Below are positions 29,455 through 51,160 of a stretch of DNA of 64,000 bases, one piece after another. The translations under genes were made by a program, and so were the position numbers. How positions within the stretch are numbered: position 1 is the stretch's first letter; every line of letters starts with the position of its first letter. The DNA is from Conexibacter woesei Iso977N (GTDB lineage Bacteria > Actinomycetota > Thermoleophilia > Solirubrobacterales > Solirubrobacteraceae), in assembly GCF_000424625.1 (NCBI RefSeq), contig NZ_AUKG01000002.1, forward strand, positions 1,736,001 through 1,800,000, written 5' to 3'. Below the pieces are notes generated by a model. The model worked only from the letters and a program-made list of their open reading frames with translations. It was not told where the DNA came from and ran no database searches.

Positions 29455-29482
29455 CGCGGGCCGCCCTGGAGGGCGGCCCGCG
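29455..29482 (+). terminator. 12-bp hairpin terminator
   Basis: Perfect stem 29455-29466 / 29471-29482 (CGCGGGCCGCCC) with TGGA loop, 28 bp past the stop at 29427. No T-run. Confidence 0.75.
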
Positions 29483-31912: not shown

Positions 31913-32779
31913 CTACTTCAGGCGGAAGGCTTTGATCCGATCGGCGTACTGGTCGGCATCCCGGCTGTACACACCGTACGCCAGCGCCTGCAGCGTGGAG
32001 AGCAGCGCGGTGTGCGAGCGCACGTAGGCCGGCGAGTTGCTCGAGTAGTACAGCTTGATCTGCGCGAGCTTGGCCACCTCGGACAGCGTCGCGTCGACCA
32101 CGGCCAGCGTGCCGGCCCTGCGGTGGCGCGCGAGCTTCATCGCCCGGACGACGAGCGGGTGCGGGCGCCCGGCGCTCAGACCGACGACCAGCGTGCCCTC
32201 GTCGATGCGGCCCAGGCGCGACAGCGCCTCCTGCGACGGCGACGCGACGATCTCGGCGCGCAGGTCGAGCAGCATCAGCAGGTGGCGGAAGTAGGAGGCG
32301 AAGAACGCCATCTGGTCGGTGCCGCAGACCAGGACGCGGTCGGCCCTGGCGATCGCGCCGATCGCGGCCTCGACCTCGGAGCGCGACACGCGGCGCGCGG
32401 TCTCCTCGACGTTCTGGAAGTCGGCGGCGATCGCGGTCTCGAACTCGTTCTGGTCGAGCGAGAACAGCGGCTCGGCCGACGACGCGGCCTGCCCGCCGAC
32501 CTGGCCGTTGGCGACCTTGCGGCGGTACTCCTCACGAGCGGAGTGCTGGAGCTCCGGGAAGCCCTCGAAGCCGAGCGCCTGCGAGAAGCGCACGACCGTC
32601 GACGACGACGTGTTCGCGCGGCGCGCGAGCTCCTCCGCGGTCTGGAACGCCACCTCGTCCAGGTGATCGACGATGTACTGCGCCACATCCTTCTGTGAAC
32701 GCGAGAACTCGTCGAAGCGCGCCTGGATGTAGGCGGAGAGAGTCTGGTGTCCCCGCGCCTCGTGCGGCGGGGCGGTCAT
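31913..32779 (-). CDS. MurR/RpiR-family transcriptional regulator
   Basis: 288 residues from ATG 32779. N-terminal HTH_6 (about 10-90): FSRSQKDVAQYIVDHLDEVA, then TAEELARRANTSSSTVVRFS and QALGFEGFPELQ. The SIS sugar-phosphate-binding domain runs from about 125 to 265 (RADRVLVCGTDQMAFFASYF, GTLVVGLSAGRPHPLVVRAM, AVVDATLSEVAKLA). Such regulators sense phosphosugars. Here it stands beside pdxST (which uses pentose and triose phosphates), with which it is on the same strand 33 bp upstream, so a link to B6 synthesis or sugar use is possible but unproven. An ATG at 32800 is an alternative start. Confidence 0.88.
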   Translation of the reverse strand: MTAPPHEARGHQTLSAYIQARFDEFSRSQKDVAQYIVDHLDEVAFQTAEELARRANTSSSTVVRFSQALGFEGFPELQHSAREEYRRKVANGQVGGQAASSAEPLFSLDQNEFETAIAADFQNVEETARRVSRSEVEAAIGAIARADRVLVCGTDQMAFFASYFRHLLMLLDLRAEIVASPSQEALSRLGRIDEGTLVVGLSAGRPHPLVVRAMKLARHRRAGTLAVVDATLSEVAKLAQIKLYYSSNSPAYVRSHTALLSTLQALAYGVYSRDADQYADRIKAFRLK

Positions 32780-32861
32780 GGTCGCGGACGTCCTCTTCAT
32801 GGGCGACCCGGGTTTTCGACAACCGCTCCGTGGAGTCCTCCAAATCGGGTCTCCGAAAGAG

Positions 32862-32981
32862 CGACGCGCCCGGTGTGGTGACCGGGCGCGTCGGGGAAGG
32901 GTGCGGGCCCACGCCGATTCCGCCGTGGAGGGCCCGCGAGAAGGACGGAGGCGGGGGGTATGGCGCCGAAGTCCGTCCTTC
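32862..32981. other. Three consecutive hairpins in a 310-bp intergenic region (candidate structured RNA)
   Basis: Region 32780-33089 has no gene. It holds hairpin 1 (13-bp perfect stem, 32862-32874/32881-32893, loop GTGGTG), hairpin 2 (8-bp stem GCGGGCCC, 32903-32910/32930-32937, 19-nt loop) and hairpin 3 (10-bp stem, 32940-32949/32972-32981, with an inner GGCG/CGCC). Purine-rich linkers join them. It lies between the divergent RpiR and FUSC genes. I recognise no known RNA family; operator or terminator roles are equally open. Confidence 0.5.
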
Positions 32982-33076
32982 CGGTTGGTGTTGCTCAAGA
33001 GGCTCCCCTGGTCGGCGTGCGACAGAAACCGGTGCACGAGCGTCTGTGTCCGTGAGGGAACGGCACCCGCGGCGGG

Positions 33077-33089: not shown

Positions 33090-34214
33090 GTGAGCTCGCG
33101 CCCCACCGTGGAGGCCGCCGTCGAGCGCTCGCGCGACTCCGCCCGGGCGCGCTGGGCGCGGTGGCGGTCGCTCGCCCCCACCCTGCTGCTGACCGCCCTG
33201 GGCGCGGGCGCGGCGTGGATGATCGCCAAGGGGATCTTCGGGACCAGGGGCGCGTTCTTCGCTCCGGTCGCCGCGATCATCACGCTCGGGCTGACGGTCG
33301 GCGCGCGGCTGGAGCGGGCGATCGAGGTGTCGGTCGGCGTGCCGCTCGGGATCGCGCTCGCCGACGTGCTCGTGCTGGAGGTCGGGTCCGGGCCGATCCA
33401 GCTGGTGTGCATCGTGTTCATCGCGACGTCGGTCGCGATCCTGGTCGGCGGCGGGCCGCTGCTGACCTCGCAGGCCGCGGTCTCGGCCGTGCTCGTCGTG
33501 ACGCTGCAGCCGCCGACGTCGGGGCTGACGTTCACCCGGGCCGCCGACGCGCTGATCGGCTGCGGCGTCGCGCTGCTCCTCAACTTCGTGATCGCGCCGA
33601 TCGACCCCATGCGGTTGGTCCGGCGCGAGGCGGTCCCGGTCCTGGTCGAGCTGGCCGGCGTCCTCGACGACGTCGCCTCCGCCCTGGCCGACCGCGACCG
33701 CGCCGACGCGATCGCCGCGCTGCAGCGTGCGCGCGACATCGACGGGCGGACCGAGAGGTTCCTGGAGGCGTTGACGATCGGGCGCGAGACCGCGTTCGCG
33801 GCCCCCGCGCGCTTCTCGCAGCGCTCGTCGCTGGCCGTCTACTCGGAGGCCGGCGGCCAGCTCGACCTCGCGGTGCGCAACGTGCGCGTGCTGGCCCGCG
33901 GCGTCCTGCGCGCGGTCGAGACCGGCGACCACGTCCCGCCCCCGGTCCCGGACGCGATCCGCGAGCTGCGCTCGGCGGTGCTGGCCCTCGGCCCGTGGCT
34001 GGAGGACCCGAAGCAGGTCGATCAGGTGCGCAGGCCCGCGATCGCCGCAGCACGCGACGCGACGATGGTGTTGGACATGACGACCAACCTGTCGGTGTCG
34101 GTGATCGTCGCCCAGGTCCGCTCGGCGGCCGTCGACCTGCTGCGCGTGACCGGCGTCGATGGCGAGCGCGCGCGGGCGCTGATCCGCGGCGAAGATGTCG
34201 GGGCCGAGCGCTAG
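33090..34214 (+). CDS. FUSC-family membrane protein (aromatic-acid-exporter-like)
   Basis: 374 residues, GTG start. Six hydrophobic segments occupy about 28-175 (LAPTLLLTALGAGAAWMIAK, FFAPVAAIITLGLTVGARLE, AADALIGCGVALLLNFVIAP). A long soluble helical domain follows (about 180-370). The order of TMs then helices matches half-FUSC/ArAE proteins (YccS, AaeB relatives), thought to export aromatic acids or similar. The gene is divergent from the RpiR regulator across the three-hairpin region. Substrate unknown. The stop lies 8 bp from the convergent GAF-GGDEF gene. Confidence 0.82.
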   Translation: MSSRPTVEAAVERSRDSARARWARWRSLAPTLLLTALGAGAAWMIAKGIFGTRGAFFAPVAAIITLGLTVGARLERAIEVSVGVPLGIALADVLVLEVGSGPIQLVCIVFIATSVAILVGGGPLLTSQAAVSAVLVVTLQPPTSGLTFTRAADALIGCGVALLLNFVIAPIDPMRLVRREAVPVLVELAGVLDDVASALADRDRADAIAALQRARDIDGRTERFLEALTIGRETAFAAPARFSQRSSLAVYSEAGGQLDLAVRNVRVLARGVLRAVETGDHVPPPVPDAIRELRSAVLALGPWLEDPKQVDQVRRPAIAAARDATMVLDMTTNLSVSVIVAQVRSAAVDLLRVTGVDGERARALIRGEDVGAER

Positions 34215-51109: not shown

Positions 51110-51160
51110 GGGTCAACGGCAGTCCGGCGTCCCATACGAACACCAAGCTGCCGTTGACCC
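51110..51160. terminator. 13-bp inverted repeat after the glycosyltransferase
   Basis: Perfect arms GGGTCAACGGCAG (51110-51122) and CTGCCGTTGACCC (51148-51160) with a 25-nt spacer. It may be a terminator; the long loop is unusual. The 51072-51481 stretch otherwise holds only the cupin remnant. Confidence 0.45.

What the first reader, a model, noticed from the sequence alone, without database searches (positions are those of the whole stretch)
32862..32981. Three strong hairpins in a row in the longest intact intergenic region: candidate structured RNA or complex operator
Stems of 13, 8 and 10 bp follow each other within 120 bp, joined by purine-rich linkers, between the divergent RpiR-type regulator and FUSC exporter. 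This density is well above anything else in the window. The FUSC hexamer TACGGT lies about 96 bp further on, so the element is either upstream DNA for regulators, or an RNA with its own promoter. I recognise no described family.
Basis: partly seen in the sequence, partly recalled or inferred. Interest (0 to 1): 0.65.

Follow-up and report, generated by a model that had tools for sequence, protein, structure and literature searches.

The report
Stress-promoter small RNA with C-rich loop
The three hairpins are very probably one small regulatory RNA gene of soil actinobacteria (Solirubrobacteraceae), switched on from a stress-type promoter and carrying a cytosine-rich loop, built like the known 6C RNA but too different to be counted as one.

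Summary
The hairpins are real (13, 8 and 10 bp) and form the only triple cluster of such stems in the window. They form one transcription unit on the MINUS strand, read towards rpiR: a sigma-B/F-type promoter (GTTT-N15-17-GGGNA, 33004-33029); a hairpin whose loop reads CAUACCCCCC (32940-32981); a second hairpin with an apical GGCGGAA motif (32903-32937); and a terminator-like hairpin with a U-rich tail (32862-32893). The unit lies upstream of rpiR in 18 genomes from six Solirubrobacteraceae genera, even where the gene on the other side differs. Stem sequences change on both sides and stay complementary, the loop motif is kept in 16 of 18, and the promoter is found in 16 of 18 (0.13 expected by shuffling). 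rpiR has its own conserved ECF-like promoter downstream, so the unit is probably not its leader. Best reading: a stress-induced small RNA of about 140 nt acting in trans through its C-rich loop, like 6C/B11 and F6 of other actinobacteria. Rfam has no family for it; it scores 19 bits against 6C (cut-off 47), and 6C's second C-run is missing. Expression and targets are untested. New variant of a known kind, moderate interest.

The parts
33004..33029 (-). sigma-B/F-type promoter GTTT-N17-GGGGA of the small RNA (-35 GTTT at 33026-33029, -10 GGGGA at 33004-33008)
   Evidence: GTTT-N14..18-GGGNA found in 16 of 18 orthologous units, 15-24 nt before the first hairpin; 0.13 expected from dinucleotide shuffles. 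Coordinates.
32854..32997 (-). predicted small RNA (about 140 nt; exact 5' and 3' ends inferred)
   Evidence: RNA fold z -7.1; covariance model match 32854-32987, 114 bits (model built from these sequences)
   Evidence: stem kept by changes on both sides in 18 orthologues; anchor-based stem test
32953..32962 (-). loop motif CAUACCCCCC, proposed seed
   Evidence: CAUAN0-2C4-8 present in 16 of 18 units from six genera; lost in G036 and G069
   Evidence: outer stem pairs keep pairing through double changes among 7 sequences and 10 units; absent in genera g18 and g6
   Evidence: compensatory changes at several pairs
32851..32861 (-). U-rich tail (GCUCUUUCGGA) of the terminator-like hairpin
   Evidence: T fraction 37% in the 12 nt after the hairpin on this strand over 16 units, 16% on the other strand
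32815..32841 (-). separate ECF-like promoter of rpiR (GGAGGA..GTCGAA), 14 nt before the ATG
   Evidence: box found upstream of rpiR in 69 of 80 family loci, most of them without the small RNA
31913..32800 (-). rpiR-type regulator (HTH_6 + SIS), downstream neighbour
   Evidence: Pfam; present in 133 of 146 family genomes
33090..34214 (+). FUSC_2 protein, divergent neighbour, not part of the unit
   Evidence: Pfam; other genes take this place in other genomes

Best explanation
The three hairpins are one small non-coding RNA gene on the minus strand. RNA polymerase with a SigB/SigF-type stress sigma factor starts at GTTT-N17-GGGGA and makes an RNA of about 140 nt that stops at the GC-rich hairpin C with its U-rich tail. 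In the folded RNA, hairpin A presents CAUACCCCCC as an open loop; this loop is proposed to pair in trans with G-rich stretches of mRNAs, such as ribosome-binding sites, and so change their translation or stability under stress. Shown here by comparative sequence evidence: strand, promoter, hairpins, conserved loop, independence from the neighbouring genes. Inferred: transcription, stress induction, pairing with targets.
For: Promoter motif in 16 of 18 orthologous units at a near-constant place, 0.13 expected; it fits the SigB-homologue promoters of Streptomyces (first three G and fifth-position A of the -10 almost invariant, GTTT in the -35; PMC8346170). The own genome has eight SigB/F/G-type sigma factors over the family cut-off. 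Both sides of the stems change while pairing is kept: swapped-arm control 58% paired against 100% for hairpins A and B (arms chosen by hand); anchor-based test without hand choice, Fisher p 3e-10 with related sequences; RNAalifold finds 12 of 24 pairs with double changes. Loop CAUAN0-2C4-8 in 16 of 18 units. U-rich tail on this strand only. The unit stays upstream of rpiR while the gene on the other side changes. rpiR has its own promoter-like box downstream. No ATG in the RNA. Known counterparts act this way: 6C via C-rich loops (Mai 2019 as cited in PMC8557902 and PMC8628891), F6 from a SigF promoter (PMC8557902).
Against: No transcript data. Two units (G006, G020) lack the promoter pattern, and two of the three known units of genus g11 (G036, G069) have lost the C-run while keeping promoter, hairpin B and terminator, so the C-run cannot be the whole function everywhere. 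The terminator's U-tract is weak in the window and the generic terminator scan finds none. The perfect 10-nt complement GGGGGGTATG occurs nowhere else in the genome (its reversed control is also absent), so any targets must pair over shorter or imperfect stretches. Distribution is patchy within the family.
Confidence: 0.72

Rival explanations
1. The hairpins are a regulatory leader of the rpiR-pdxS-pdxT genes: transcription starts at the stress-type promoter, the RNA senses something, and hairpin C terminates or reads through into rpiR.
For: Same strand as rpiR and always directly upstream of it; a terminator-like hairpin before the gene is the usual layout of an attenuator.
Against: rpiR has its own conserved ECF-like box between hairpin C and the ATG, also in genomes without the element, with only 11-14 nt between box and ATG. 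Loop and stem lengths vary, hairpin B is optional, no Rfam riboswitch is near, and the unit is missing upstream of most rpiR genes of the family.
Confidence: 0.15
2. The inverted repeats are DNA operators for regulators of the divergent rpiR and FUSC genes.
For: Position between divergent genes; inverted repeats suit dimeric repressors.
Against: Stem sequences of hairpin A differ almost completely between genomes while complementarity is kept, the opposite of a conserved binding site; the conserved part is the unpaired loop; FUSC is not the neighbour in several genomes; stems sit between a promoter and a U-rich tail.
Confidence: 0.05
3. The element is a true, highly diverged member of the 6C RNA family (RF01066).
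For: Same plan: C-rich hairpin followed by a terminator hairpin, similar size, same phylum. In G192 the RNA scored as 6C starts about 25-30 nt after a promoter 44/45 identical to SCO3557p, which six SigB homologues recognise.
Against: 19 bits against a cut-off of 47; no 6C over the cut-off in 146 family genomes; no C-run in the terminator loop; conserved CAUA before the C-run, not seen in the 6C sequences fetched; beside rpiR instead of ssd.
Confidence: 0.12

Closest known systems
6C RNA (Rfam RF01066; B11 of Mycobacterium tuberculosis)
   Same: Small actinobacterial RNA of a C-rich-loop hairpin plus terminator hairpin; in the one Streptomyces-type copy examined (G192, 44.2 bits, just under the Rfam cut-off) also behind a SigB-type promoter.
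   Different: 6C carries C-runs in both hairpins and clear members score 70-90 bits; this element has one C-run, a CAUA motif, often an extra hairpin with GGCGGAA, another neighbour gene, and scores 19 bits.
F6/SfdS of Mycobacterium tuberculosis
   Same: Small RNA expressed from a SigF-type promoter (PMC8557902), with a C-rich loop (PMC2764107).
   Different: No match in the Rfam scan; different neighbours; F6 is processed to 58 nt, not testable here.
CcsR1 (RF02791), stress-induced CCUCCUCCC RNA
   Same: Best weak Rfam hit (20.9 bits, E 0.007); C-rich stress RNA.
   Different: Far below the cut-off of 65.3; the CCUCCUCCC motif is absent and the hit covers hairpins B and C only.
SigB-homologue promoters of Streptomyces coelicolor (PMC8346170)
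   Same: GTTT / GGGNA boxes.
   Different: Here 15-17 nt lie between GTTT and GGG; recognition by a sigma factor not tested.

Membership tests
6C RNA (RF01066) | score at or above the Rfam gathering score (47 bits) | tested here: not met
   19.0 bits, E 3.1; no family genome over the cut-off
6C RNA (RF01066) | two stem-loops, each with a run of about six or more C | tested here: not met
   only hairpin A has the C-run; the terminator loop is CACCAC in the window
6C RNA (RF01066) | C-rich hairpin followed by a terminator-like hairpin | tested here: met
6C RNA (RF01066) | pairs with mRNAs through C-rich loops | not testable with these tools
   needs reporter or pull-down experiments
SigB/SigF-dependent small RNA gene | GTTT..GGGNA promoter directly upstream | tested here: met
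   16 of 18 units, 0.13 expected
SigB/SigF-dependent small RNA gene | a SigB/F-type sigma factor in the genome | tested here: met
   eight over the TIGR02980 cut-off
SigB/SigF-dependent small RNA gene | transcript made and dependent on the sigma factor | not testable with these tools
   no RNA data
cis-acting leader or riboswitch of rpiR-pdxST | the downstream gene depends on this promoter for its transcript | tested here: inconclusive
   rpiR has its own conserved promoter-like box, read-through cannot be excluded
any described Rfam family | match at the gathering score | tested here: not met
   only two tRNAs in the window

The most novel reading that the evidence does not exclude
A new small-RNA family of the Thermoleophilia that converged with 6C on the same design (SigB-type promoter, one exposed C-run, terminator), which would make 'a stress sigma factor drives a C-rich-loop RNA' a recurring regulatory solution in actinobacteria without Hfq, with a second, C-run-independent functional site (GGCGGAA in hairpin B) that outlives the C-run in some species.
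Probability: 0.4. Interest if true: 0.6.

Novelty: new variant of a known kind. Interest (0 to 1): 0.48.

Why it matters
Hardly any small RNAs are described from the class Thermoleophilia, a large part of soil actinobacteria; none was found in the paper library. This one comes with a promoter, a fold, a candidate seed and orthologues in relatives, so it can be tested directly. Together with the likely SigB-type promoter of Streptomyces 6C and the SigF promoter of F6, it suggests that C-rich-loop RNAs are a standard output of the actinobacterial stress response.

Tried and rejected
Rfam at gathering and relaxed thresholds: only weak hits (CcsR1, 6C, CRISPR repeat, microRNA), judged chance because they cover the generic GC-rich hairpins. 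Other weak 6C hits in the family lie in unrelated places with no CAUA-C motif and were dropped. Weak hits of the own models outside the rpiR locus that were looked at (L209, L210, L212, L213, L215, L220-L222, L225, L235-L240) lack the promoter pattern and, but for one CATACCCCC string in L225, the loop motif; most look like ordinary terminators. A second copy in the own genome was sought and not found. BLAST places in the own genome matching hairpin C are coding repeats or unrelated. Search for the perfect complement of the loop as a target site: only the locus itself. A kissing interaction of GGCGG (hairpin B) with CCGCC (hairpin A) was considered and not pursued, because hairpin B keeps GGCGGAA where the C-run is lost. 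A protein-coding reading was rejected: no ATG in the RNA.

Full report
Observation. In the 64-kb window it is the only place with three perfect hairpins (stem at least 8) inside 125 bp. The minus strand folds far better than shuffles (-80.0 against -53.4 +/- 3.7 kcal/mol, z -7.1), the plus strand less so (z -4.0). The flanking genes are an RpiR-type regulator (HTH_6, SIS), followed on the same strand by pdxS (and a pdxT-like frame), and a divergent FUSC_2 protein. Close relatives of the regulator come from records named Solirubrobacterales, Solirubrobacteraceae, Conexibacter, Paraconexibacter and Solirubrobacter, so the organism is a member of that group.

Conservation. A DNA search of 61 relatives found the region in genomes of the same genus (G001, G002, G006) and in another genus (G020). 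The unit is always upstream of rpiR and in its orientation, while the gene on the far side changes (FUSC in G000, G001 and by its reading frame G002; a protein-L-isoaspartate methyltransferase-like gene in G020; a co-directional gene in G006; gene names for the relatives are my reading). Reading about 70 upstream regions of rpiR orthologues and one further model hit (L211) gave 18 units from six genera: g1 (4), g15 (1), g3 (2), g18 (7), g6 (1), g11 (3). Covariance models found no further copy in 146 family genomes or in 151 genomes drawn from the order; the remaining hits look like terminators or chance. On a tree of the regulator protein the units are clustered but not one clade, which fits an old element with several losses; G004 of the same genus and many other genera lack it at rpiR.

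Anatomy, in the sense of the minus strand. (1) Promoter: GTTT, 15-17 nt, GGGNA, 15-24 nt before the first hairpin, in 16 of 18 units; dinucleotide shuffles give 0.13 expected. The units are related, so the formal probability is overstated, but the pattern recurs in five genera with different spacers. It fits the promoters of SigB homologues of Streptomyces coelicolor, in which the first three G and the A at position five of the -10 are nearly invariant and the -35 is GTTT or GNNT (PMC8346170). The own genome has eight SigB/F/G-type sigma factors over the curated cut-off. (2) Hairpin A: purine-rich 5' arm, pyrimidine-rich 3' arm, an inner GGC(G)/(C)GCC stem, and a loop CAUA followed by a C-run of four to eight, in 16 of 18 units. 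(3) Hairpin B, with apical GGCGGAA, present in g1, g15, g3 and g11, absent in g18 and g6. (4) Hairpin C, GC-rich, followed by a U-rich tail: 37% T in the next 12 nt on this strand against 16% on the other. The tail is weak in the window itself (GCTCTTTCGGAG) and the generic scan does not call it.

Are the stems selected? RNAalifold on seven sequences finds 24 pairs in hairpins B and C, 12 of them kept through changes on both sides in at least one sequence. The hairpin A arms do not align by sequence, so I listed the arms by hand: 15 different 5' arms in 18 units, all complementary to their own 3' arm, against 58% when arms are swapped between genomes. Because hand-picked arms pair by construction, I also tested it without choosing: around the CAUA-C anchor, the best stem between the flanks beats shuffled flanks, combined p 3e-10 (single values 0.002 to 0.45, sequences related).

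Independence from neighbours. rpiR of this family has its own conserved box, GGAA(C) or GGAGGA, 12-17 nt, (C/G/T)(T/G)CGAA, mostly 11-14 nt before the ATG, in 69 of 80 loci including many without the element; I read it as an ECF-type promoter with an almost leaderless mRNA (inference). The RNA has no ATG. So the simplest reading is a stand-alone small RNA gene, with possible read-through into rpiR.

How it works. Actinobacteria have small RNAs with exposed C-runs. 6C/B11 binds several mRNAs through C-rich loops without an RNA chaperone (title of Mai 2019, cited in PMC8557902 and PMC8628891). F6 depends on SigF (PMC8557902), and most of the M. tuberculosis RNAs first cloned have C-rich loops (PMC2764107). 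By analogy the loop CAUACCCCCC is the likely seed, pairing with G-rich sites near start codons. This step is inferred. The exact complement GGGGGGTATG is found nowhere else in the genome, nor is its reversed control, so pairing would be shorter or imperfect. G036 and G069 keep everything but the C-run: either the RNA lost its C-run function there or hairpin B carries another.

Relation to 6C. Five sequences matching the 6C model were fetched for comparison, two of them above Rfam's cut-off. The clear ones share the plan but have C-runs in both hairpins and no CAUA. The element scores 19 bits against a cut-off of 47, so membership fails. One link turned up: in G192 the RNA scored as 6C (44.2 bits) begins about 25-30 nt after a promoter identical in 44 of 45 positions to SCO3557p, which six SigB homologues of S. 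coelicolor recognise and which was assigned to a septum-site gene. The words sRNA and 6C RNA do not occur in that paper, so I infer that SCO3557p may be the 6C promoter in Streptomyces. If so, both C-rich RNAs are outputs of SigB-type sigma factors.

Verdict. It is a new family at the level of sequence but a variant of a known kind of regulator. Transcription, stress induction and targets remain to be shown.

Noticed in passing
window 32815-32841 (minus strand): rpiR orthologues across the family carry a conserved GGAAC/GGAGGA..CGTCGAA box 11-14 nt before the ATG: an ECF-like promoter with a nearly leaderless mRNA.
   Followed up: partly
L195:1430-1501: The promoter SCO3557p of Streptomyces coelicolor (recognised by six SigB homologues, assigned to a septum-site gene) lies directly upstream of the 6C RNA in a 9.2-Mb relative; it may be the 6C promoter.
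   Followed up: partly
L048 and L061: Two g11 genomes keep promoter, hairpin B (GGCGGAAC) and terminator of the unit but have lost the C-run of hairpin A, a natural loss-of-seed contrast to L058.
   Followed up: partly
whole genome G000: GGGGGGTATG occurs once in 5.7 Mb (the locus itself) and its reversed control not at all, so such G-runs appear strongly depleted.
   Followed up: no
window 51110-51160, 29455-29482, 648-678: Other perfect hairpins with 12-13 bp stems in the window, outside any triple cluster.
   Followed up: no
G000: Eight sigma factors of the SigB/F/G type over the curated cut-off in one genome, suggesting a layered stress response like that of Streptomyces.
   Followed up: no
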